From: Catenulispora sp. MAP5-51
GTDB taxonomy: Bacteria > Actinomycetota > Actinomycetes > Streptomycetales > Catenulisporaceae
DNA: 64,000 nt
Assembly (NCBI RefSeq): GCF_041261205.1
Contig: NZ_JBGCCH010000011.1
Span: 62,001 to 126,000 of the forward strand
Direction of reading: 5' to 3'
This document shows positions 51,326 through 62,068 of this stretch, piece after piece. Every line of letters begins with the position of its first letter. The stretch's first letter is position 1. The notes beneath the pieces were generated by a model that saw nothing but the letters and a program-made list of their open reading frames with translations, was not told the DNA's origin and ran no database searches. A program made the position numbers and the translations under genes.

Positions 51326-52117
51326 TTACGAATACGCCGGGGCCGCCGGAGCACTGAGATCATAGTGCGCCGCGTCATTTCCGATCAGCGCGGCCAGTAT
51401 CCGAGCCTTGAGATCCGGCTGATCCGGACCGCCCCACAGGACCGTCACCGAGTGCTGTTTCTTTGTCGAAGCCGTCAGCGTCAAGGTGATCGCATAGGGC
51501 CCCGTCGCCGACACCGTGAGCACCCGCGAGTGCACCGGGGCCGGCAGGGCCCCCAGCGCGGCCAGCGCGCCGGCCACGGTCGCCGCGCGGTCCGCGGCCG
51601 CCCGGTCGGCGAACTGCTCCAGGTGGATGACCGGGACGTGCGCCGGAATCGCCGAGGCGGTGGCCGCTGTGTCGAAGGCCACGCCGTCGGAGTCCACGAT
51701 CTGGTAGGAGCCGTCGGGCTGCGGCAGCGCGGCGGCGGGCGTGCGCTCCACGATGGAGATGGCGATCGTGTGCGGCAGTGAGCGCTCCACCCACGCGTCC
51801 TTCACCCGCGGAATCGCCATCAGCCGGGCCTTGGCCGCCGCGGTGTCCACCCCGGCGACCGGTGTGTGCGGCGCGATCGCGGCCGCGGCCAGCACCTGCT
51901 GGCGGCTCAGCACCCTGGTGCCGGCCACGGTCGTGGTGCGGACGTCGAACACCTTGGTGTGCCACAGGATCGAGTACCCGGTCAGGGCCAGCAGCGCCAG
52001 GAACACCGTGATCGTCACCGACAGCCGCCGCCAGCGGCGCCGCCGCCGCAGCCGGTCGAGGTAGCGCTCGACCAATACCCTGCTGACCCGCGGGTGGTCG
52101 GCTCCGGTGGCGTTCAT
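51326..52117 (-). CDS. ftsQ: Cell-division protein FtsQ
   Basis: The 263-residue protein has an Arg-rich cytoplasmic tail (RLRRRRRWRRL), a membrane span at about 34-52 and a periplasmic POTRA domain (VFDVRTTTVAGTRVLSRQQVLAAAAI), followed by the FtsQ beta domain (VKDAWVERSLPHTIAISIVERTPAA). It links FtsZ-associated proteins with septal synthases. ATG 52117 is supported by family length; the frame extends to 52627 without a good start. Unlike most actinobacteria, murC does not precede it. Confidence 0.92.
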   Translation of the reverse strand: MNATGADHPRVSRVLVERYLDRLRRRRRWRRLSVTITVFLALLALTGYSILWHTKVFDVRTTTVAGTRVLSRQQVLAAAAIAPHTPVAGVDTAAAKARLMAIPRVKDAWVERSLPHTIAISIVERTPAAALPQPDGSYQIVDSDGVAFDTAATASAIPAHVPVIHLEQFADRAAADRAATVAGALAALGALPAPVHSRVLTVSATGPYAITLTLTASTKKQHSVTVLWGGPDQPDLKARILAALIGNDAAHYDLSAPAAPAYS

Positions 52118-52250
52118 GGGCCCAGTTTCGCAGATGGGGACGATGCCATCGGGCAGGTGCGCCTCTTCGGGATCCTCAACGGATTCCCCCCGATCCCCCA
52201 TTCGGACCGCGCGGCGTGCGGGGCCGCGCCGGGCAGCGTCAGATCGAGCC

Positions 52251-52832
52251 ATGGCACTCACCTCCAGGCAGAAGAAGCAGGGGGCCGTGGCGACCGCCGC
52301 GGTCGGCGCCCTGGCGATCGGCGGCATCGCGGTCTCGACCCTCGGTTCCTCCGCGTCCCCGACGGATTCCCGGCCGGTCGCCGCCGCGGCCGTGCCACAG
52401 CCGGCGGCCGCGCCCGCCGCGCCGGCATCACCGAAGATGCAGAGCCCCGCGGCCGCCGCGGCGGCGGGGACGGTCGCCGTCACCGCCCAGGCCGACAACA
52501 CAAAGCCCGGCGACGACACCGTGTTCACGGTCTCCGGCGAGGTCACCGGCGCCAAGCCGGGCACGAAGATCCGCCTGCAGCGGCAGCAGACGACGACCTC
52601 GCACAAGGCCGCGTCGGCCTGGAACACGCTGGCCTACACGACCTTCACCGACCAGGACGGCAAGTTCTCGCTGCCGGTGAAGATGGAGACGGCCGGTTCC
52701 TTCAACCTGCGCGTCCAGCACCCGCAGGACAAGGAGGGGCCGCAGACCGTGTACTCGATCCCGTTCACGGTGACTGTGAGCTCGACGGCGGCCTCCGCGA
52801 AGACCTCAGCGAATCCGGCCAAGCAGGGCTGA
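52251..52832 (+). CDS. Secreted protein with Ig-like beta-sandwich, unknown function
   Basis: The 193-residue protein has a signal peptide (RQKKQGAVATAAVGALAIGGIAVSTL), an Ala/Pro-rich linker and one domain (VAVTAQADNTKPGDDTVFTVSGEVTGAKPGTKIRLQRQ to TVTVSS) with the alternating pattern of a bacterial Ig-like fold. No catalytic residue is evident. Its function is unknown. It is divergent from ftsQ and starts the block that separates ftsQ from murC. Confidence 0.7.
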   Translation: MALTSRQKKQGAVATAAVGALAIGGIAVSTLGSSASPTDSRPVAAAAVPQPAAAPAAPASPKMQSPAAAAAAGTVAVTAQADNTKPGDDTVFTVSGEVTGAKPGTKIRLQRQQTTTSHKAASAWNTLAYTTFTDQDGKFSLPVKMETAGSFNLRVQHPQDKEGPQTVYSIPFTVTVSSTAASAKTSANPAKQG

Positions 52833-52916
52833 GGCGAAAGCCCCTCGATCCGCCCGGCCACCACTTAGGCGAGGAGTGGCCGGGCTTTCCCCTGTCCGGA
52901 TTCAGAGGAACCTCTG

Positions 52917-54239
52917 TCAGAGGAACCGCGAACTCGGCACGGGCCCCGGCGAGCCGATGTACTCCCGCCGCGCGGTCAGCCAGGTGCCCTCGATCTCGGA
53001 GACGAACGCCTCCAGGACGGAGTCCGGGTCCGGCGGGGTCGCACCGTCGCCCTCGTCGGCGTAGGGCTCGGCCGCGGCGAGTTCGGCCGCGATCTCCTCG
53101 GCCGGACGGTCGTCGGGCTCGGTCTCGACCACCTCGCCGTCGACCATGCGGAAGGCCGCGCCCCACGGCTCGCGCACCGCCTGGCGCAGGAAGCCCACCA
53201 CGTCGGCGGCGGCCAGCGGCGGATCGGTCCAGTCGGTGGCCCGCTCGAACAAGATCTGGCCGGCCGTCCGGTCGCGCAGCGCGGACAGGATCTCCGGCTC
53301 AGATTCGTTGAGGTCGTAGGCGACCACGAGGGTCTCGGATCGGTCCGGCGCGAACGGCACGGCCGGCAGCCCGAAGTACCGCGCGGCCGCCATCCCCAGG
53401 ATCCGGCTGTCCCGGTCGGGCAGCAGCGAGACGGTCTGCGGGGCCCGGCCCTTGACCGCCAGCACCATTTTGAGCCGGCGCAACACCTCGGCGCAGGTTC
53501 CATAGGAGTCCCCGACCATGGCCCAGCGGCCGGTCATGCCCGCGTCGTAGCCGTACGGCGAGACGGTCAGCAGGACGCCGCCGGTGAGGGCGAAGTGCCA
53601 GCCGCGCAGGTCCTTCGGCGCGAGCCCGCCGTCGGTCACGGCGACCGCGGCCGCCCGGACCAGCATCGCGCGCACCTTCTCCCGCAGCGGCGCCAGCTCC
53701 TCCCGGTCCTGCGGCTCGGGTTCGGGCAGCGCCGCGAACTCCTGCTCGGCACCGGCCACGTCGCCGGCCAGCAGCGCGTTGAACGTCAGCTGGTAGCGCG
53801 CCAGCCAGGGCAGCTCGCCGTCGAAGCCGCGCAGCGCGGCCATCGCCTCGCGGTGCTCCCAGGAGCGCTCGCAGGCCGCGGCCAGCTCGGTGCGGATCTG
53901 GATGACGCCGGGCTCGCGCTCGGCGGCCTCGCGCAGCGGCCGGACCGCCAGGAAGGCGATCCCGTGCTCGACGCACTCGTACCCGAACTCGTACAGGCCC
54001 ACCGCCTGCTCCTCGCGGTCCTCGCCGGCGGCCAGGACCCGCTCGGCGGCGACCGCCATGGCATCGAAGCCCATGGCGCCGGCGGCGTCGCGCAGGACGC
54101 GCACGAAATCCAGCAGGGGCAGCGCGTCGCCGTCCACGCGCAGATGCCGGACCACCCCGGCGATGTCGCCCGCGGCGAGCAGGTCGTCGACGGCGGACAG
54201 GACGTCGGTGGCCGCGGGGGCGGCGCCTTCAGGAGTCAC
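52917..54239 (-). CDS. Actinobacterial protein of unknown function, 440 residues
   Basis: Starting at GTG 54239 the protein contains helical repeats in the first half (VLSAVDDLLAAGDIAGVVRHLR, EDREEQAVGLYEFGYECVEHGIAFLAVRPLREAAEREPG and others), resembling TPR-like units. A second half follows with mixed alpha/beta sequence (GWHFALTGGVLLTVSPYGYDAGMTGRWAMVGDSYGTCAEVLRRLK). No signal peptide or membrane span. I do not recognise a family. Convergent with the upstream secreted-protein gene and alone in its transcript. Confidence 0.7.
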   Translation of the reverse strand: MTPEGAAPAATDVLSAVDDLLAAGDIAGVVRHLRVDGDALPLLDFVRVLRDAAGAMGFDAMAVAAERVLAAGEDREEQAVGLYEFGYECVEHGIAFLAVRPLREAAEREPGVIQIRTELAAACERSWEHREAMAALRGFDGELPWLARYQLTFNALLAGDVAGAEQEFAALPEPEPQDREELAPLREKVRAMLVRAAAVAVTDGGLAPKDLRGWHFALTGGVLLTVSPYGYDAGMTGRWAMVGDSYGTCAEVLRRLKMVLAVKGRAPQTVSLLPDRDSRILGMAAARYFGLPAVPFAPDRSETLVVAYDLNESEPEILSALRDRTAGQILFERATDWTDPPLAAADVVGFLRQAVREPWGAAFRMVDGEVVETEPDDRPAEEIAAELAAAEPYADEGDGATPPDPDSVLEAFVSEIEGTWLTARREYIGSPGPVPSSRFL

Positions 54240-54444
54240 CGTGGCACGGTAGCGATTCCGCCGTATGCCGCGCCGAGGTTTTTCGCAGCGGCCGTCTCAT
54301 CCTCATTGAATCAGTGAACGAATTTCAGGACTCTTACAACCAGATGGGATCCCGGCGTCGTCGGTACTTCGCGAGAGCACAGGGCTCCGGGGCGCACAGC
54401 GCATCCGCGCGCCGGGGCCGTCCGACGATCTGGAGGAACCGCTT

Positions 54445-56439
54445 GTGCTAGCACGAACCCGTCGTGTCCCGACCATGGCCGCGGCCGTGGCGCTGGGCCT
54501 TGCCACCGCCGGGGGAGCCGCCTCGGCCGCCTCGGCCCTGTCGGCCCCGGCCGCCGCACCGGCCCCGCACAGCCTGGCCGGCCCGCAGGCCGCCACGCTG
54601 CCCAACGGCGACCGCGTCCTGGTCTCCGGTACCGGTCCGGCCGCGTCCATCATGGTCCAGGCTCCCGACGGCAGCACCGTCCCGGCCGTCCGCTACATGC
54701 CCGACACGCACCACGCCTACGTCATCCCCGACTCGGTCCTGGCGAACCCGGCGCAGCTGTCCACCCTGGCGCAGTACCAGGTACCGGCGCTGAGCACCGC
54801 GAGCGCGCCGGCGGCGACGCCGTTCTACCCGCTGAGCATCCTGCAGATCAACGCGCTCGGCCTGGACGGCAAGGCCGCGGACGCCACGACCTTCCTGACC
54901 AACGTCGACGACGCCACCAAGTGGAGCATGCCGCTGCCGGTGGCCGGCGGCATCGAGCGGGTCGCGGTGCCCACCGGGCACTACTCGGCGACCACCATCT
55001 TCGACTCCTACGACGCCACGACCGGCATCGACACCATGCACGTGGCCGCGCAGCTCGACCTGACGGTCACCGCCGGCGGCGTCACCACCGTGACCGCCGA
55101 CGAGCGCACCGCGACCGCGCAGGTCACCGCGATCGCGCCGAAGCCGACCGTCGCCGACGCCACCACGCTGGCCTACCTCCGCACCGACACCAAGGGCCTG
55201 ACCGGCGGTGTGACCATCCTCGGCGACGGCGGCCCGACCTACGTCAGCCCGACGGGCACCGCGCAGGTCGGCACCTTCAGCTACGACCTGCAGTCCTGGG
55301 GCGGCGAGAGCCCGGCCGGGACCGCGAACCCCTATCGGTACGACGTGATGTTCCCGGCCGCCGACCACGTGGACGCGAACCAGAACCACACGGTCGACGC
55401 CTCGAAGCTGACCACCACCCACAACATCGTCTCCACGGATCCCGGCGAGACGCGGCACCAGGGCGAGTACATGGTGGGCCCGGTCTCGCCGACCCAGGGC
55501 GGCTTCCAGACCGGCCACGTGATCACGGTCCCGGAGAACCTGACCGCCTACACCGGCCCGCCGATCGGCGACGACCAGTGGGTGGCGACCGTCATCCCGG
55601 CCCTGCCGGACGTGACGAGCGGCTTCCCGGCGGCGCTGTTCTTCAACCAGAACGGACCGGTCTACCAGGGCAAGACCGAGGTCTGGCACACCTGGGCGCA
55701 CGGCCCGCTGACCCCGCAGGCGGGGCAGTTCAAGGACCCGGCCGGCTGCCGCTCCTGCGCTGACGGCGGCACCGTCGACCTGGCCCTGAGCGCACTGACC
55801 GACAGCAACCCGGACAGCACGGCCGACTTCATGGGCCCGGCGACGGGCCACTTCACGGTCTACCGCGACGGCACCCAGGTCTTCTCCCAGGACAACGCCT
55901 CCGGCGCCGAGCTCACCGGCCAGGCGCAGACACCCGGCACCTACCGCATGGTGTTCGACCTGGACCTGAGCCAGTTCCCGATCACCCAGTCCACGGCCTC
56001 GCACACCGACATCACCGTGCCCTACACCCCGGCACAGGACCCGAAGTCGACGCTGCCGGCCGGCGACTTCTGCCAGGCGCAGGGCACCGGCACCACGCCG
56101 TGCTCGATCCTGCCGGTGCTGAACCTGAACTACCAGCTGGCCACCGACGGCTTCAACACCACGCACGGCCCGGTCGCGGCGATGCTGCTGACCGTCGGCC
56201 ACCAGTCCTACGGCAAGGCCGGTTCGCAGGCGGCGATCACCGGCGCGACCGTGTCCGTGTCCTACGACAAGGGCGCCACCTGGACCCCGGCCTCGGTGGT
56301 CCCGGCCGGGCAGGGCCACTACGCCGTGCTGTGGACGAACGGTGCCAAGGGCGCCACGCCGTGGCTGAAGGTCACCGCCACCGACGCGCTCGGCGGCTCG
56401 ATCACCCAGACCGTCGCCAACGCCTACACCATCGGCTGA
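54445..56439 (+). CDS. Large secreted protein, protease-associated beta-rich domains
   Basis: The 664-residue protein starts at GTG 54445 after GGAGG. A signal peptide (about 1-35) precedes beta-rich sequence with no protease triad. Segments such as YPLSILQINALGLDG, TWAHGPLTPQAGQFKDPAGCRSCADGG and GHFTVYRDGTQVFSQDN recall the long C-terminal regions of actinomycete S8 peptidases, but here they stand alone. It may be a secreted adhesin or protease partner. The S53 peptidase gene follows 14 nt later on the same strand. Confidence 0.75.
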   Translation: MLARTRRVPTMAAAVALGLATAGGAASAASALSAPAAAPAPHSLAGPQAATLPNGDRVLVSGTGPAASIMVQAPDGSTVPAVRYMPDTHHAYVIPDSVLANPAQLSTLAQYQVPALSTASAPAATPFYPLSILQINALGLDGKAADATTFLTNVDDATKWSMPLPVAGGIERVAVPTGHYSATTIFDSYDATTGIDTMHVAAQLDLTVTAGGVTTVTADERTATAQVTAIAPKPTVADATTLAYLRTDTKGLTGGVTILGDGGPTYVSPTGTAQVGTFSYDLQSWGGESPAGTANPYRYDVMFPAADHVDANQNHTVDASKLTTTHNIVSTDPGETRHQGEYMVGPVSPTQGGFQTGHVITVPENLTAYTGPPIGDDQWVATVIPALPDVTSGFPAALFFNQNGPVYQGKTEVWHTWAHGPLTPQAGQFKDPAGCRSCADGGTVDLALSALTDSNPDSTADFMGPATGHFTVYRDGTQVFSQDNASGAELTGQAQTPGTYRMVFDLDLSQFPITQSTASHTDITVPYTPAQDPKSTLPAGDFCQAQGTGTTPCSILPVLNLNYQLATDGFNTTHGPVAAMLLTVGHQSYGKAGSQAAITGATVSVSYDKGATWTPASVVPAGQGHYAVLWTNGAKGATPWLKVTATDALGGSITQTVANAYTIG

Positions 56440-56453
56440 GAGAGAACACAACC

Positions 56454-57707
56454 ATGAGTCGAATAGGAAACCACCGGCTGCTGGGGATGCTCGGGGCCAC
56501 CGTGCTGGCCGTCGGCACCGTCGCGGCCGCGGTGGCACCGGCCAACGCCAGCGCCGCTCACAGCAAGACTCCCAGCACCATCAAAGACGTGTGCGCCACC
56601 GCCAAGCCCGGCTTCGACCGCTGCTTCGCACAGGCCCGCACCGACGTTAAGGAACCGGCCCACATCGGGCATGCGGCAGGCCTCAACGCCGCCGCGACCA
56701 CTCTGCCGGCCGGGTTCGGCCCGGCGGACCTGCAATCGGCGTACAAGCTGCCGACCACCGGCGGCGCGAACCAGACTGTTGCGATCGTCGACGCCGGGGA
56801 CGACCCGACGGCTGAGGCGGACCTGGCGGTCTACCGTTCCACCTACGGCCTGTCGGCCTGCACCACCGCCAACGGCTGCTTCACCAAGGTCAACGAGCAG
56901 GGCAAGACCACCCCGGTCCCGGCCGACCAGGGCTGGGGCGTGGAAATCGCCCTGGACCTGGACATGGTCTCCGCGGCCTGCCCGCAGTGCAAGATCCTGC
57001 TGGTCGAAGCCGACCAGCCCACCGGCGACGACCTCGGCAAATCCGTCAACACCGCCGTCAGCCTCGGCGCCACCGAGGTGTCCAACAGCTACGGCGCCAC
57101 CGAATCCAGCGTGACGCCCGCCGACGCCGCCTACTACACCCACCCCGGCACGGCCATCGTCGCCTCCTCCGGCGACAGCGGCTACGGCATCCCGGCCGAA
57201 CCAGCCGTGTTCTCCTCGGTGATCTCCGTCGGCGGCACCTCGCTGACCAAGGCCACCAACGCCCGCGGCTGGTCTGAGAGCGCCTGGCAGGGCGCCGGCT
57301 CCGGCTGCTCCGCCTGGGTCGACAAGCCCGCCTGGCAGACCGACGCCAACTGCCCCGGCCGCATGGTCGCCGACGTCTCCGCAGACGCCGACCCCAACAC
57401 CGGCCCGGCCATCTACGTCACCGACACCCCCGACCTCGAGGGACTGCCCTCCGGCTGGAACGTCGTCGGCGGCACCAGCGCCTCCTCGCCCTTCATCGCC
57501 GGCGTCATCGCCCTGGCCGGCAACCCCGCCAAGTACAACAACGCCTCCGCCTTCTACACCCCCGGCGCCAAGACCGGGCTCAACGACGTGGTCAGCGGCA
57601 ACAACGTCACGTTCCAAGACTGCGGCGGCGACTACCAGTGCAACGCCGTCACCGGCTACGACGGACCCACCGGGCTGGGCACGCCGAACGGGCTGTCAGC
57701 CTTCTGA
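56454..57707 (+). CDS. Secreted S53 (sedolisin-like) serine-carboxyl peptidase
   Basis: The 417-residue enzyme has a signal peptide (1-34) and a short pro-region. Catalytic motifs are Glu164 and Asp168 in WGVEIALDLDMV, Asp241 in SSGDSGYG and Ser342 in GGTSASSP. Sedolisins work at low pH. The typical large S53 propeptide is much reduced here. Cysteines (CTTANGC, CPQC, CSAW) suggest extracellular disulfides. It is transcribed with the large secreted protein upstream; the stop codon is in a 13-bp duplication, followed by a perfect hairpin. Confidence 0.87.
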   Translation: MSRIGNHRLLGMLGATVLAVGTVAAAVAPANASAAHSKTPSTIKDVCATAKPGFDRCFAQARTDVKEPAHIGHAAGLNAAATTLPAGFGPADLQSAYKLPTTGGANQTVAIVDAGDDPTAEADLAVYRSTYGLSACTTANGCFTKVNEQGKTTPVPADQGWGVEIALDLDMVSAACPQCKILLVEADQPTGDDLGKSVNTAVSLGATEVSNSYGATESSVTPADAAYYTHPGTAIVASSGDSGYGIPAEPAVFSSVISVGGTSLTKATNARGWSESAWQGAGSGCSAWVDKPAWQTDANCPGRMVADVSADADPNTGPAIYVTDTPDLEGLPSGWNVVGGTSASSPFIAGVIALAGNPAKYNNASAFYTPGAKTGLNDVVSGNNVTFQDCGGDYQCNAVTGYDGPTGLGTPNGLSAF

Positions 57708-57728
57708 TGTCCCAGTTCTGATGTCCCA
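57702..57728. repeat. Stop-codon-straddling 13-bp duplication in the S53 peptidase gene
   Basis: TTCTGATGTCCCA occurs at 57702-57714, including the TGA stop, and again at 57716-57728, a period of 14 bp. Confidence 0.9.
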
Positions 57729-57742
57729 TTAAGTACACAGCG

Positions 57743-57774
57743 AGGGGCCGGTGCCTCCCCAGGCACCGGCCCTT
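57743..57774 (+). terminator. Hairpin terminator after the S53 peptidase
   Basis: GGGCCGGTGCCT (57745-57756) and AGGCACCGGCCC (57761-57772) are exact inverse complements around CCCC, extended by two weaker pairs. A short T/C run follows. Confidence 0.75.
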
Positions 57775-57854
57775 CGTCCACCCACCCCGCCGCCATAATT
57801 ATGTTCTGATAGGGTATCGAAACGTAATTCATCGCTCGAAGGGTGGGGATCGCC

Positions 57855-58181
57855 ATGACCGCTAACGTGCCCGCAACCGCAGTGCTCCGCGTCTCGTCCG
57901 GGAGCTTCGACCCGACTCTGTACACCGACATCTCGGCGCTGAGCACGAAGCAGTCGGAGTACCTGATCCCGGCCATCAAGGCCCTGCCGGGGCTCCTGGA
58001 CTTCGTCGCCGGTGTCTCGCCGGACGGCTCGATGGTGAACTTCAGCGTCTGGGACACCGCCGAGCACGCGGCGCAGATGAACACGCTGAAGGAGATGGCC
58101 GTCATCGCCCGCGGCGAGATGGAGGCGGCCGGCGTGACGTTCAACCCGATCGTCACCCAGCCGGTCGGCTGGACCATCTGA
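57855..58181 (+). CDS. Small ABM-like dimeric alpha/beta-barrel protein
   Basis: The 108-residue protein has the antibiotic-biosynthesis-monooxygenase-like pattern: VLRVSSGSFDPTLY, LIPAIKALPGLLDFVAGVSPDGSMVNFSVWDTAEHAAQM, with no clear catalytic residues. Such proteins can act as small monooxygenases or as binding partners. ATG 57855 has GTGGGGAT upstream. It converges on a flavin monooxygenase gene with 2 nt between stops, which hints at a common role. Confidence 0.75.
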   Translation: MTANVPATAVLRVSSGSFDPTLYTDISALSTKQSEYLIPAIKALPGLLDFVAGVSPDGSMVNFSVWDTAEHAAQMNTLKEMAVIARGEMEAAGVTFNPIVTQPVGWTI

Positions 58182-58183
58182 CC

Positions 58184-59383
58184 TCACGCGGTCGCTTTGC
58201 GGTCCCAGTCCACCCGGAAGCGGTGGACGGGACCGAACATCTTCTCCGGCCGCAGGAACGTCCGCGTCGCGATCGGCATGATGAGGCCGAACACGAACTT
58301 GGCGGCCGGACCGGCGGTCTTGCCGTTGTTCGTCTTCACCGCCTGCTCCGAGATCTCCTCCACCCGCGGCCGCCGCAGGCCCTCGTACTTGGCCAGCGCC
58401 GCCGGCAGGTCGTCGATGTCGCGCAGGCAGCGCGCCAGTTCCAGCGCGCTCTCCAGGGCCAGCGAGGCACCCTGGCCGGAGCTGGAGGACGGCGCGTGCG
58501 CCGCGTCCCCGACCAGCACCATGCGGTCCCGGAACCAGTGCGGCAGCTTGGGCATCCGCTCCATCGGGCCGGTCAGCAGCATGGTGTCCTCGGTGGCGGA
58601 CTGGAACAGGCGGTTGCCGGGCCGGTCGTCGGCATGCGCGGCGCGCAGCTTGGCCAGCCACTCCCCCTTCGGCACGGCGCGGGCCTGGGCCAGCGTCATG
58701 GGCTTGTCCTGCGGGTGGTTGCTGAAGAAGACCTCTGAGCCGTCCGGCTGCGTCCAGTACCCGTAGAAGGAGTGCTTGCCGAAGGCGAAGCGCATCTCCT
58801 GGATGTCGCCGGGCTTGAAGGGCCCCTTGAGGTTCCCGAAGCCGAAGCTCATCAGGCCGGTGTACTCCGGCCCCGGCGCCTGCGGGTCGATCAGGGTGCG
58901 CACGGTCGAGCGGATGCCGTCGGCGCCGATCAGCAGGTCGGCGGTGGCGGTGCTGCCGTCCTCGAACCGCGCGGTGACGCCGCCGGCATGCTCCTCGACA
59001 CCGACCAGGCGCTTGCCGTCGTGGATGACGATGCCCTGCGCCGCGGCACCGGCCCGGATGGCGTCGAACAGGTCGGCGCGGTACATGACGCGGCTCGACG
59101 GCAGGTCCGGCAGCGAGGGCACGCGCATCAGGGTCTTGCCGTTGCCCTTCTCCATGACCATGGCGTGCAGCGGGTTGCCGACGGCCTCGACCGCGGCCCG
59201 CAGGCCCACGGTCTCCAGCGCGGCCAGGCCGTTGGGGGCGACGGTGAGCATGGCGCCGGACCGGTCTGTGGTCGCGTAGGCCTCGTAGACGGTGGCTTCT
59301 ATCCCGGCCTTGGCCAGGGCGAGGGCGGTGACGGGGCCGGCGATTCCGCCGCCGATGACGATGGCGTTCTTGATGGCTGTCAT
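58184..59383 (-). CDS. FAD-dependent monooxygenase (PHBH/UbiH-like)
   Basis: The 399-residue class A flavoprotein monooxygenase has AIVIGGGIAGPVTALALAKAG (dinucleotide fold), LLIGADGIRSTVR (DG motif) and RMVLVGDAAHAPSSSSGQGASLALESA (FAD ribityl-binding GD motif). It hydroxylates or epoxidises an aromatic or polyketide-like substrate; which is unknown. A 27-bp palindrome lies 18 nt upstream of ATG 59383. Regulators for such genes are usually adjacent, but none is here. Confidence 0.9.
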   Translation of the reverse strand: MTAIKNAIVIGGGIAGPVTALALAKAGIEATVYEAYATTDRSGAMLTVAPNGLAALETVGLRAAVEAVGNPLHAMVMEKGNGKTLMRVPSLPDLPSSRVMYRADLFDAIRAGAAAQGIVIHDGKRLVGVEEHAGGVTARFEDGSTATADLLIGADGIRSTVRTLIDPQAPGPEYTGLMSFGFGNLKGPFKPGDIQEMRFAFGKHSFYGYWTQPDGSEVFFSNHPQDKPMTLAQARAVPKGEWLAKLRAAHADDRPGNRLFQSATEDTMLLTGPMERMPKLPHWFRDRMVLVGDAAHAPSSSSGQGASLALESALELARCLRDIDDLPAALAKYEGLRRPRVEEISEQAVKTNNGKTAGPAAKFVFGLIMPIATRTFLRPEKMFGPVHRFRVDWDRKATA

Positions 59384-59400
59384 GAGGAGATAGTTACATG

Positions 59401-59427
59401 GAGACTAGTTGTAGTGCAACTAGTCTC
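59401..59427. promoter_or_regulatory. 27-bp operator palindrome of the FAD monooxygenase gene
   Basis: GAGACTAGTTG (59401-59411) and CAACTAGTCTC (59417-59427) are exact inverse complements around TAGTG. The ACTAGTTG core is of the TetR operator type. It lies at the promoter position for the monooxygenase gene (-18 from the ATG). Confidence 0.7.
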
Positions 59428-59442
59428 TGGAATTGCGCACGC

Positions 59443-59471
59443 AAAAGGGCGCCCCGTAGACGGGACGCCCT
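59443..59471 (-). terminator. Intrinsic terminator of the ftsW-murG-murC operon
   Basis: The arms 59446-59457 and 59460-59471 pair over 12 bp with one G-T or mismatched position. On the minus strand they are followed by TTTT (59443-59446). It lies 22 nt past the murC stop and marks a real end of the cell-wall operon before ftsQ. Confidence 0.75.
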
Positions 59472-59492
59472 GATCTCGAAGTGTGCTGCCGG

Positions 59493-60902
59493 TCAGGCCA
59501 GCAGCCTCAGCAGCCGCGGACCGATCTCGGTCACGTCGCCGGCCCCGACCGTCACCACCAGGTCGCCGGGACCGGCCAGCTCGGCCAGCCGCTGCGGCAC
59601 CAGGTCGAAGTCGGGCTCGAACACGCTCGCGGCGGCCGGGAGTCCGGTCTCGGCGGCGATCACGTCGCCGCCGACGCCGGGGATCGGCTTCTCGCCGTGC
59701 GCGTACACGTCCAGCACCACGACCGCGTCGGCGCCGCCGAGGGCCGGGCCGAACTCGTGCAGGAAGGTGTTGGTGCGGAAGTAGCGGTGCGGCTGGAAGG
59801 CGGCGATCACGCGGCCCTGGCCGGCCAGTTCGCGGGCCGCCGACAGGATCGAGGCGATCTCGGTCGGGTGGTGGCCGTAGTCGTCGTAGACCCGCACGCC
59901 GGCGGCCTCGCCGAGCAGCTGCATCCGGCGGCGCGCGCCGCTGAACCCCGCGACGCCCTCCAGGTACGGCTTGGCGTCCACGCCCAGGGCCAGCGCCACG
60001 CCGAGCGCGGCGGCGGCGTTGAGGGCGTTGTGCCGAGCGGGGATGCTCAGGGTGATCGGGCCGTGGGTGTCGGCGGCCGTGACCAGGGTGAAGGTCGGGT
60101 AGCCGCCGACGGTGCCGACGTCGGCGACCCGGATGTCGACGTCCTCGCCGGCGCCATAGGTCAGCACCCGGATCCCGCGCGCGGCGGTGCGCTCGGCGAT
60201 GGCCCGGGCGGCCGGGTCGTCGGCGTAGCAGACCAGGGTGCCCCCGGGCTCCAGGCGGTCGGCGAAGTCCTGGAACTCGGCGCGGACCTGCAGCACGTCG
60301 GCGAAGTGGTCGGGATGGTCGAGCTCGATGTTGGTGATGACCGAGACGTCCGGCCGGTAGTGCGTGAAGGTGCCGTCGGACTCGTCGGCCTCGGCGATGA
60401 GGATGTCGCCGGACCCGGCGTGCCCGGACTCCCCGGTCTCGCCGAGCTCGCCGCCGATGACGAAGCTCGGGTCCAGCCCGGCGTGCCGCAGCGCGACGGC
60501 GACCATCGAGGTGGTGGTGGTCTTGCCGTGCGTGCCGGCCACCGCCACCGACCGGTACCCGGGCATCAGCGAGGCCAGCGCGGAGGCCCGGTGCAGCACC
60601 CGCAGCCCGCGCGCCTTCGCCTCGACGATCTCGACGTTGTCGGCCGGGATGTCGCCGGAGACCACGACGGTGTCGACCCCGTCCAGATTCTCCGCCGCCT
60701 GCCCGATGGCGATGGTCGCACCGAGCGCCCGCAGCTCGCTGACGGTCGCGGTGTCCTTGATGTCGCTACCGGACAACGGCAGGCCGCGACCGAGCATCGC
60801 GCGAGCCAGCGGAGCCATGCCGACGCCGCCGATGCCGACCAGGTGGATGCGGCCGAGGTCGGCGGCGGGGACCACTTCGGCGGGGGCGGGGAAGCGGGTC
60901 AT
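59493..60902 (-). CDS. murC: UDP-N-acetylmuramate--L-alanine ligase MurC
   Basis: The 469-residue Mur ligase adds L-Ala to UDP-MurNAc with ATP. Motifs: IHLVGIGGVGMAPLA (N-terminal Rossmann), the P-loop GTHGKTTTTS (123-132), DESDGTFTHY, NIELDHPDHF and DDYGHHPTEI (ligand-binding domain). It overlaps the stop of murG by 4 nt and ends with a terminator. It is normally followed by ftsQ, but is not here. Confidence 0.96.
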   Translation of the reverse strand: MTRFPAPAEVVPAADLGRIHLVGIGGVGMAPLARAMLGRGLPLSGSDIKDTATVSELRALGATIAIGQAAENLDGVDTVVVSGDIPADNVEIVEAKARGLRVLHRASALASLMPGYRSVAVAGTHGKTTTTSMVAVALRHAGLDPSFVIGGELGETGESGHAGSGDILIAEADESDGTFTHYRPDVSVITNIELDHPDHFADVLQVRAEFQDFADRLEPGGTLVCYADDPAARAIAERTAARGIRVLTYGAGEDVDIRVADVGTVGGYPTFTLVTAADTHGPITLSIPARHNALNAAAALGVALALGVDAKPYLEGVAGFSGARRRMQLLGEAAGVRVYDDYGHHPTEIASILSAARELAGQGRVIAAFQPHRYFRTNTFLHEFGPALGGADAVVVLDVYAHGEKPIPGVGGDVIAAETGLPAAASVFEPDFDLVPQRLAELAGPGDLVVTVGAGDVTEIGPRLLRLLA

Positions 60903-62068
60903 CGGTCGCCGTCCTTGTTCTCGCCGTCCAGGATGTCTGTGGCCGTTCCGGCCGGTGCGGCGGCGACTTCGGCGGCCGACCCCGGCCGCTTCTTCCCCGC
61001 CGCGGCGAACACCAGGTCGACGATCTTCTCGTCCGCGTCCCGGATCCCGAACCGCCGCGCGGCCTGGCTCATCGTCGTCAGGCGCTCGCGGTCGAGCAGC
61101 AGCGGCACCACGTTCGCGGCGAACCACTGCGGGGTCAGGGCCGCGTCGTCGATCAGCAGCCCGCCGCCGGCCTCGACCACCGGCGCGGCGTTCAGGCGCT
61201 GCTCGCCGTTGCCCACCGGGAGCGGCACGTACACCGAGGGCAGCCCGACCGCGGCCAGCTCGCTGCAGGTCATCATCCCGCTGCGGGTCATCGCCAGGTC
61301 GGCGGCCGCGTAGGCGAGGTCCATCCGGTCCACGTAGGGCCGCGCCACGTACGGCGGGCCCGCGGGGTCCTGCTCTATCCACACCGAGTTCTTGTCGCCG
61401 TAGGAGTGCAGCACCTGGATCCCGGCGTCGTGCAGGGCCTTCACCGAGGCGACCATCGTGTCGTTCAGCCGCCGCGCGCCCTGCGAGCCGCCGGTGACCA
61501 GCAGCGTGGGGCGGTCGGGGTCCAGGCCGAAGGCCTTGCGGGCCTCGGCGCGCACGGCCGCGCGGTCCAGGCCGGTGATGGCCGGGCGCAGCGGCATGCC
61601 CACGCAGGTGGCGCCGGGCATCGGGACCGCCGGGTTGCCGGTGAGCACGTGGTCGGTGAACTTGGCGCCGACGCGGTTGGCCAGGCCCGGGCGGATGTTC
61701 GCCTCGTGCACGACGATCGGCCGCTTGGCCCGGCGCGCGGCCAGGTAGGCCGGCAGCGCGACGTAGCCGCCGAAGCCGATGACGACGTCCGCGTCCACGT
61801 CCATGATCACCTGCTGCGCCGCCTTGACCGTGCCGAGCAGCCGCGAGGGCAGCGTCAGCAGCGAGGCCGAGGGCTTGCGCGGCAGCGGGACGGCCGGGAT
61901 CAGGCGCAGCTCGTACCCGCGGGCCGGGATGAGCTTGGTGTCCAGGCCCTTCTCGGTGCCGAGCATCGTGACCCCGATCGAGGGGTCGGCACGCCGCAGG
62001 GCGTCCGCGGTGTTCAGGGCGGGTTCGATATGCCCGGCGCTGCCGCCGCCGGCGATGACCACATGCAC
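60899..62068 (-). CDS. murG: UDP-N-acetylglucosamine transferase MurG
   Basis: The 389-residue GT28 enzyme converts lipid I to lipid II at the inner membrane face. MHVVIAGGGSAGHIEPAL is the first G-loop, VHEANIRPGLANR the donor/acceptor loop, LLVTGGSQGARRLNDTM the second G-loop and DLAMTRSGMMTCSELAAVGLPSVYVPLP the UDP-GlcNAc site. It is encoded 9 nt after ftsW and overlaps murC by 4 nt. The C-terminal extension (about 30 residues, PGSAAEVAAAPAGTATD) is poorly conserved. Confidence 0.96.
   Translation of the reverse strand: MHVVIAGGGSAGHIEPALNTADALRRADPSIGVTMLGTEKGLDTKLIPARGYELRLIPAVPLPRKPSASLLTLPSRLLGTVKAAQQVIMDVDADVVIGFGGYVALPAYLAARRAKRPIVVHEANIRPGLANRVGAKFTDHVLTGNPAVPMPGATCVGMPLRPAITGLDRAAVRAEARKAFGLDPDRPTLLVTGGSQGARRLNDTMVASVKALHDAGIQVLHSYGDKNSVWIEQDPAGPPYVARPYVDRMDLAYAAADLAMTRSGMMTCSELAAVGLPSVYVPLPVGNGEQRLNAAPVVEAGGGLLIDDAALTPQWFAANVVPLLLDRERLTTMSQAARRFGIRDADEKIVDLVFAAAGKKRPGSAAEVAAAPAGTATDILDGENKDGDR

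What the first reader, a model, noticed from the sequence alone, without database searches (positions are those of the whole stretch)
52118..59492. 7.4 kb of unrelated genes interrupts the division and cell-wall cluster between ftsQ and murC
In actinobacteria the usual order is ftsW-murG-murC-ftsQ-ftsZ. Here a strong terminator (59443-59471) ends murC, and six genes on both strands, including a secreted S53 peptidase, a large secreted protein and a flavin monooxygenase, lie before ftsQ. murD is also absent upstream of ftsW. The rearrangement separates ftsQ/ftsZ transcription from lipid II synthesis genes and places new secreted proteins in the gap. The interruption is visible in the sequence; the usual order is established knowledge; its consequence is inference.
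Basis: partly seen in the sequence, partly recalled or inferred. Interest (0 to 1): 0.55.

Follow-up and report, generated by a model that had tools for sequence, protein, structure and literature searches.

The report
Protease cassette splits cell-division gene cluster
In soil bacteria of the genus Catenulispora, a pair of secreted-protease genes and later add-on genes have become wedged into a row of cell-division genes that relatives keep together; it is a real and inherited rearrangement of the genus, probably without a direct role in division.

Summary
Confirmed: between the ftsQ start (52117) and the murC stop (59493) lie six genes on both strands, and a hairpin follows murC. The genome belongs, by inference, to Catenulispora. 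This is no one-strain oddity or assembly join: 8 of 9 genus genomes with an ftsQ match have it, including finished C. acidiphila. G007 of the genus, four genomes of sister genera and one of another family read murC-ftsQ directly, so the gap is derived. It seems to have grown by steps: G003 holds two of the genes. murD is not missing; it lies 4.5 kb upstream of ftsW, outside the window. The cluster is fractured further: mraZ to mraY sit elsewhere. The probable founding insert is a two-gene unit, a secreted beta-sandwich protein (g664) followed by an S53 sedolisin. The genome has seven g664 matches; the pairing recurs across actinobacteria (39 of 47 near-full-length copies). Between copies the peptidase domain, and in G008 the end of g664, look homogenised by gene conversion, while most of g664 diverges. 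Likely meaning: accessory exoproteases settled beside an ftsQ that can be expressed on its own. A role in division is unsupported; transcription was not measured.

The parts
51326..52117 (-). ftsQ
   Evidence: POTRA_1 and FtsQ_DivIB_C; single POTRA match in the genome
52123..52136 (-). 14-base block CATCTGCGAAACTG just upstream of ftsQ, identical in 9 of 9 genus loci with or without the insert
   Evidence: one exact copy in the own genome
52251..52832 (+). g193, secreted-looking protein with a weak, below cut-off Ig-like match; at this place in 7 genus genomes
52917..54239 (-). g440, protein of unknown function with a weak TPR match; at this place in 7 genus genomes (broken in G008), patchy relatives in family f2
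54445..56439 (+). g664, secreted tandem beta-sandwich protein, first gene of the two-gene cassette
   Evidence: model pLDDT 87.5; fold search; copies; linkage
56454..57707 (+). S53 sedolisin, second gene of the cassette
57855..58181 (+). g108, small protein of unknown function; among the dcw loci compared, found only here and in G008
58184..59383 (-). FAD-dependent monooxygenase
   Evidence: FAD_binding_3 E 1.1e-28
59446..59471 (-). terminator-like hairpin after murC
   Evidence: not listed by the stricter scan
59493..60902 (-). murC
   Evidence: TIGR01082 E 1.3e-140
60899..62068 (-). murG
   Evidence: TIGR01133
62078..63331 (-). ftsW
   Evidence: TIGR02614

Best explanation
A genus-level, stepwise break-up of the dcw cluster. 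Shown: in Catenulispora the cluster is in pieces (mraZ-rsmH-FtsI-like PBP-murE-murF-mraY elsewhere, murD separated from ftsW, murC separated from ftsQ), while sister genera keep murC beside ftsQ. Inferred from the distribution: the first insert at murC|ftsQ was a two-gene unit, a secreted beta-sandwich protein (g664) followed by an S53 sedolisin, of which the genome has several copies; g440, g193, the monooxygenase and g108 came later. Inferred: ftsQ is expressed from its own promoter near the conserved 14-base block, murC transcripts stop at the hairpin, and the inserted cassette works outside the cell as an accessory exoprotease rather than in division. Inferred for the pair: g664 is the targeting or docking partner of the peptidase, because the two genes are neighbours or fused in many actinobacteria and because the peptidase domain stays alike between copies, apparently by gene conversion, while residues 45-480 of g664 diverge.
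For: Interruption in 8 of 9 genus genomes with an ftsQ match; G003 has only g664 and S53 there; G007, G010-G013 and G015 have 112-197 bases between the murC and ftsQ matches. murE/murF lie 5.1 Mb from murC in one-contig C. acidiphila and on other contigs in seven more genus genomes, but in one stretch with murC in G010-G013 and G015 (names). The hairpin after murC is found in six of the seven genomes with the large gap, a different one in G003, none in G007. S53 lies right behind g664 in 39 of 47 near-full-length cases; the two read as one ORF in two genomes tested. Window against copy C57 of the same genome: S53 86-417 97.3% aa and 0.847 at four-fold sites, against 96.7% and 0.818 for the orthologue in G008, while g664 45-480 is 52.7%. 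The seven dcw S53 copies tested are rejected as one clade (AU p 1e-4) while their g664 partners group at 92/90.
Against: No transcript data, and no sigma-70-like site found. The tree joins G003 with G007 (91/93); putting G007 outside all interrupted genomes costs 10 log units, p-AU 0.081, so insertion followed by loss in G007 is open. The dcw cassette of G003 does not group with the other seven dcw copies, so an independent insertion there is not excluded. Gene conversion in S53 of G008 is weaker: four-fold identity with its paralogue is 0.768, below the orthologue's 0.818. The run test also gave low counts for orthologous and between-genome pairs, so it is not specific. 8 of 47 near-full-length g664 copies have no S53 beside them. 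G002 lacks the hairpin. The targeting role was not tested.
Confidence: 0.7

Rival explanations
1. The cassette entered once in the ancestor of the whole genus, together with the separation of murC from ftsQ, and G007 later lost it cleanly.
For: Tree joins G003 (with cassette) and G007 (without) at 91/93; in G007 murC and ftsQ are 112 bases apart with the same 14-base block, not nearly overlapping as in sister genera.
Against: The other placing of G007 is not rejected (p-AU 0.081), G003 fills only 45% of the columns, and no remnant of the cassette was seen between murC and ftsQ in G007. G007 is a 77% complete MAG.
Confidence: 0.4
2. The cassette was placed and kept here because its protease acts in septation or sporulation together with FtsQ/FtsZ.
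For: Kept at this place in 8 genomes of the genus; ftsQ and g193 are divergent neighbours here.
Against: Other copies lie beside genes unrelated to the wall (oxidoreductase, glycosyl hydrolase 16, NB-ARC/TPR); the pair occurs in many actinobacteria at loci where no other dcw gene was found; G007 has no copy here.
Confidence: 0.08
3. The segment is a recently acquired genomic island.
For: g440 is patchy, with relatives in 13 f2 genomes of 147 order genomes searched, so single genes may have come by transfer.
Against: No mobility gene among the six, no tRNA gene in the window, no long direct repeat framing the segment among those shown, base composition like the flanks, and step-like presence across the genus.
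Confidence: 0.05
4. g664 is not a targeting partner but an inhibitor, a folding helper replacing the missing prodomain, or a substrate of the peptidase.
For: No activation prodomain recognised in the peptidase; g664 lies in front of S53, also in the fused forms.
Against: Related modules sit at the C-terminal end of S8 subtilases, where a prodomain role is unlikely (reasoning, not tested); 8 of 47 near-full-length copies stand without S53.
Confidence: 0.35
5. The interruption is an assembly artefact.
For: The assembly has 87 contigs.
Against: Same junctions in one-contig C. acidiphila and six other genomes; G003 shows it in shorter form.
Confidence: 0.01

Closest known systems
dcw cluster with murE to ftsQ co-transcribed (M. 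tuberculosis/BCG; PMC3605390, passages)
   Same: Same genes, and the same order inside the pieces: murD, ftsW-murG-murC, ftsQ-ftsZ
   Different: Broken between mraY and murD, widened between murD and ftsW, interrupted by 7.4 kb between murC and ftsQ; hairpin after murC
Streptomyces dcw cluster (murX, murD, ftsW, murG, ftsQ, ftsZ in a published construct; PMC5943314, passage)
   Same: ftsQ does not follow murC there either; 29 of 29 f2 loci have murG beside ftsQ
   Different: There murC lies elsewhere; here murC stays in place and unrelated genes lie between
S53 sedolisins (kumamolisin, sedolisin)
   Same: Catalytic domain match, E 6.5e-29; conserved Glu/Asp/Asp/Ser
   Different: No prodomain recognised; a separate beta-sandwich gene precedes it
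Large S8 subtilases of Streptomyces and relatives with long C-terminal regions
   Same: Their C-terminal part matches g664; 6 of the 8 proteins examined carry Peptidase_S8
   Different: In Catenulispora the module is its own gene, usually in front of an S53 peptidase

Membership tests
dcw cluster | contiguous same-strand division and wall genes | tested here: not met
   three breaks in this genome
dcw cluster | gene order kept inside the pieces | tested here: met
   ftsW-murG-murC and ftsQ-ftsZ as in sister genera; mraZ to mraY collinear
dcw cluster | co-transcription of murC with ftsQ | not testable with these tools
   only indirect signs: hairpin and opposing genes
S53 sedolisin | catalytic Glu, Asp, oxyanion Asp and Ser (which residues they are here is recalled from motif patterns) | tested here: met
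   E164, D168, D241, S342 invariant in 23 sequences
S53 sedolisin | similarity to solved members | tested here: met
   13 kumamolisin or sedolisin sequences at E 3e-21 or better with the profile; none with the single sequence
S53 sedolisin | N-terminal activation prodomain (typical; not part of the catalytic definition, recalled) | tested here: not met
   no such Pfam match up to E 1
genomic island or mobile element | mobility genes, tRNA site, framing repeats, odd composition | tested here: not met
   (one search showed the 20 largest of 33 direct-repeat families)

The most novel reading that the evidence does not exclude
The g664-S53 units form a constant-catalyst, variable-adaptor protease system: dispersed copies exchange the peptidase domain and the docking end of g664 by domain-wise gene conversion while the rest of g664 diversifies and aims the same enzyme at different targets; one such unit became fixed inside the division cluster.
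Probability: 0.28. Interest if true: 0.55.

Novelty: new variant of a known kind. Interest (0 to 1): 0.35.

Why it matters
Gene order in the dcw cluster is often taken as nearly frozen. One genus here shows what look like intermediate states of its break-up (no gap genes, two, five or more), so the order and the tolerance of such breaks can be tested. Separately, the recurrent pairing and fusion of a beta-sandwich partner with an S53 peptidase, together with likeness between copies confined to certain domains, gives a concrete hypothesis for how secreted peptidases are aimed in acid-soil actinomycetes.

Tried and rejected
A fold of g440 from its single sequence was too poor to use (pLDDT 42). 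phmmer of the single S53 protein against the PDB found nothing; the profile did. The promoter scan gave no site. The PDB fold search for g664 shows only tandem Ig/Fn3-like chains with whole-length TM near 0.1, so no particular relative is named. Island and misassembly readings were rejected as told among the rivals. Literature searches: (open-licence papers only). Their listings showed no report of this interruption or of the g664-S53 pairing; most listed papers were not opened. PMC3605390, PMC5943314, PMC4255298, PMC6411800 and PMC3035231 were seen as passages only.

Full report
Observation. The gap genes are g193 (+), g440 (-), g664 (+), an S53 peptidase (+), g108 (+) and an FAD monooxygenase (-). 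G+C content over the gap is like that of the flanks. The hairpin after murC folds with 11 pairs in a 55-base stretch of -25.7 kcal/mol; the stricter scan did not list it. Signal peptides are read from the sequences by eye; no predictor was run.

Where it comes from. The window is G000:C11:62001-126000 of a 10.9 Mb genome in 87 contigs. G004, of the same genus, is one contig of 10,467,782 bases, the length published for C. acidiphila (PMC3035231, passages). The genus name is an inference from this. Family f2 is taken to be Streptomycetaceae from its kinship and genome sizes, also an inference.

Is it special to this genome? No. Of ten genus genomes nine have an ftsQ match; G005 has none. In eight of the nine the gap between the murC and ftsQ matches is 3.6-9.5 kb, in G007 112 bases; in G010-G013 (other genera of the family) and G015 (another family of the order) it is 116-197 bases. 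One-contig C. acidiphila has the same junctions, which excludes a misassembly. In a class-wide draw of 60 genomes, 50 had a match and the best 30 were kept as loci. All 26 of these from outside the order have murC within about 1.5 kb of the ftsQ match. All 29 f2 loci (27, 2 more) have murG there and no murC match. The usual order is right for most of the class sampled and wrong for that family, in line with the gene list of an S. coelicolor construct (PMC5943314, passage).

A cluster in pieces. murD lies 4.5 kb upstream of ftsW, outside the window (L056:5829-7379). murE and murF lie on other contigs than murC in seven draft genus genomes and 5.1 Mb away in one-contig C. acidiphila; for G003 no murE was recognised among its four matches. 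Being on different contigs of a draft is weak evidence by itself. In G000 the other half is mraZ, rsmH, an FtsI-like PBP, murE, murF and mraY, followed by unrelated genes, and G007 also has mraY away from murD. In G010-G013 and G015 the Mur ligases of the cluster lie in one stretch with murC. In G007 a single ORF lies between murD and ftsW.

Growth by steps. G003 has only g664 and S53 in the gap. g193 and g440 are in the seven others. The monooxygenase is whole in six, a 22-residue remnant in C. acidiphila; g108 was matched only in G008 besides the window. g440 is broken into pieces in G008. G004 and G009 carry one more ORF next to ftsQ. In 14 family genomes g193 and g440 gave no strong match outside this place; one weak match each was seen elsewhere. 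g440 has matches in 13 f2 genomes among 147 order genomes searched, 11 of them long, at 43-52% identity. The tree of seven dcw proteins joins G003 and G007 at 91/93, so a loss in G007 competes with a later insertion; the alternative is not rejected (p-AU 0.081). The dcw cassette of G003 does not group with the other seven: its lineage may have parted before the copies multiplied, or the insertion there may be independent. The same place and direction speak for one event (inference).

The border with ftsQ. A 14-base block just upstream of the ftsQ start is identical in nine of nine genus loci with and without the insert, while further upstream only scattered columns agree in all nine. It is absent from eight loci outside the genus and occurs once in the own genome. 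Much the same hairpin follows murC in six of the seven genomes with the large gap, not in G002; G003 has a different hairpin and G007 none. In G010, G012 and G013 the murC stop and a likely ftsQ start nearly overlap (by eye). With the opposing genes this makes separate expression of ftsQ likely, as an inference. In BCG murE to ftsQ are co-transcribed and ftsZ starts a new transcript (PMC3605390, passages).

The cassette. The peptidase is an S53 sedolisin by profile with the four catalytic residues invariant in 23 sequences; no prodomain was recognised. g664 has no Pfam match up to E 1. Its model from 43 aligned sequences is confident (pLDDT 87.5) and nearly all beta, like tandem Ig/Fn3 sandwiches. 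The own genome has seven g664 and 21 S53 matches. Five of the seven g664 have S53 directly downstream, one of them in a single ORF; a like fused frame is suggested by equal open-frame lengths in six genomes and was read through in two. Among 65 named loci two gave no match at 1e-5 and were left out. Of 47 near-full-length g664, 39 have S53 right behind on the same strand (19 of 24 in Catenulispora, 20 of 23 elsewhere); of 16 partial matches one does. Of eight proteins with long open frames examined by Pfam, six carry Peptidase_S8, one sigma-70 regions and one nothing.

Gene conversion. Window and copy C57 of the same genome are 52.7% identical over g664 45-480 but 97.3% over S53 86-417, where four-fold sites are 0.847 identical, slightly above the orthologue in G008 (96.7%, 0.818, 203 sites each, a small difference); over S53 1-85 the order reverses (0.478 against 0.944). 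In G008 the paralogue is below the orthologue in S53 (0.768) but above it in g664 485-664 (0.894 against 0.782). The longest run shared at polymorphic sites was 52 for the G000 pair (0 of 5000 shuffles; third positions of S53 6 of 5000) and 57 for the G008 pair (0 of 5000; third positions of S53 48 of 5000). The between-genome pair G000dcw-G008C5a (34 sites, 0 of 5000) and the orthologous pairs (25 and 6 of 5000) also gave low counts, and pairs with C35/C14 82-91 of 5000, so the test reflects uneven constraint too. The seven dcw copies of g664 tested form one group (92/90), those of S53 do not (AU p 1e-4). Conversion is thus the best reading, not proven; old exchange plus strong constraint on S53 is the alternative. 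Similarity between copies falls off at the S53 stop codon, and the copies share GATCTGGAGGAAC just before the g664 start.

Reading. The interruption is a real, inherited, derived feature of Catenulispora. The most economical account is that a dispensable exoprotease pair settled between murC and a separately expressed ftsQ, and that further accessory genes followed. C. acidiphila is acidophilic (PMC3035231, passages) and S53 peptidases go with acidophily in archaea (PMC6411800, passages), which fits an extracellular digestive role. A role in division has no support here. The adaptor role of g664 rests on neighbourhood, fusion and the contrast of divergence.

Noticed in passing
L137:7137-9851: ORF of 905 aa with sigma-70 regions 2 and 4 near the N-terminus and a g664-like C-terminal part in Actinocatenispora comari: possibly a sigma factor joined to an extracellular sensor.
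   Followed up: partly
window 59401-59427: Palindrome GAGACTAGTTG-5-CAACTAGTCTC upstream of the monooxygenase gene, present in variant form in some relatives; perhaps the operator of a regulator encoded elsewhere.
   Followed up: no
L066:1117-4179 and L074:3750-6653: g664-like and S53 parts in one open frame.
   Followed up: partly
L038:5114-6321: g440 matched only in separate pieces in G008: decay or sequencing errors.
   Followed up: no
L035:4583-6022 and the like place in L039: Extra ORF between ftsQ and g193 in G004 and G009, looking like a MocR/GntR-type regulator from its first residues (recalled, not tested).
   Followed up: no
L065:4915-7284: g664 copy without S53 beside a gene for an NB-ARC/TPR protein.
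   Followed up: no
own genome (G000) and G008: 21 and 27 S53 matches in single genomes: a large set of sedolisins in the genus.
   Followed up: partly
L056:5829-7379 and L166:5425-14494: murD beyond the window end, and the mraZ-mraY half of the dcw cluster on another contig.
   Followed up: yes
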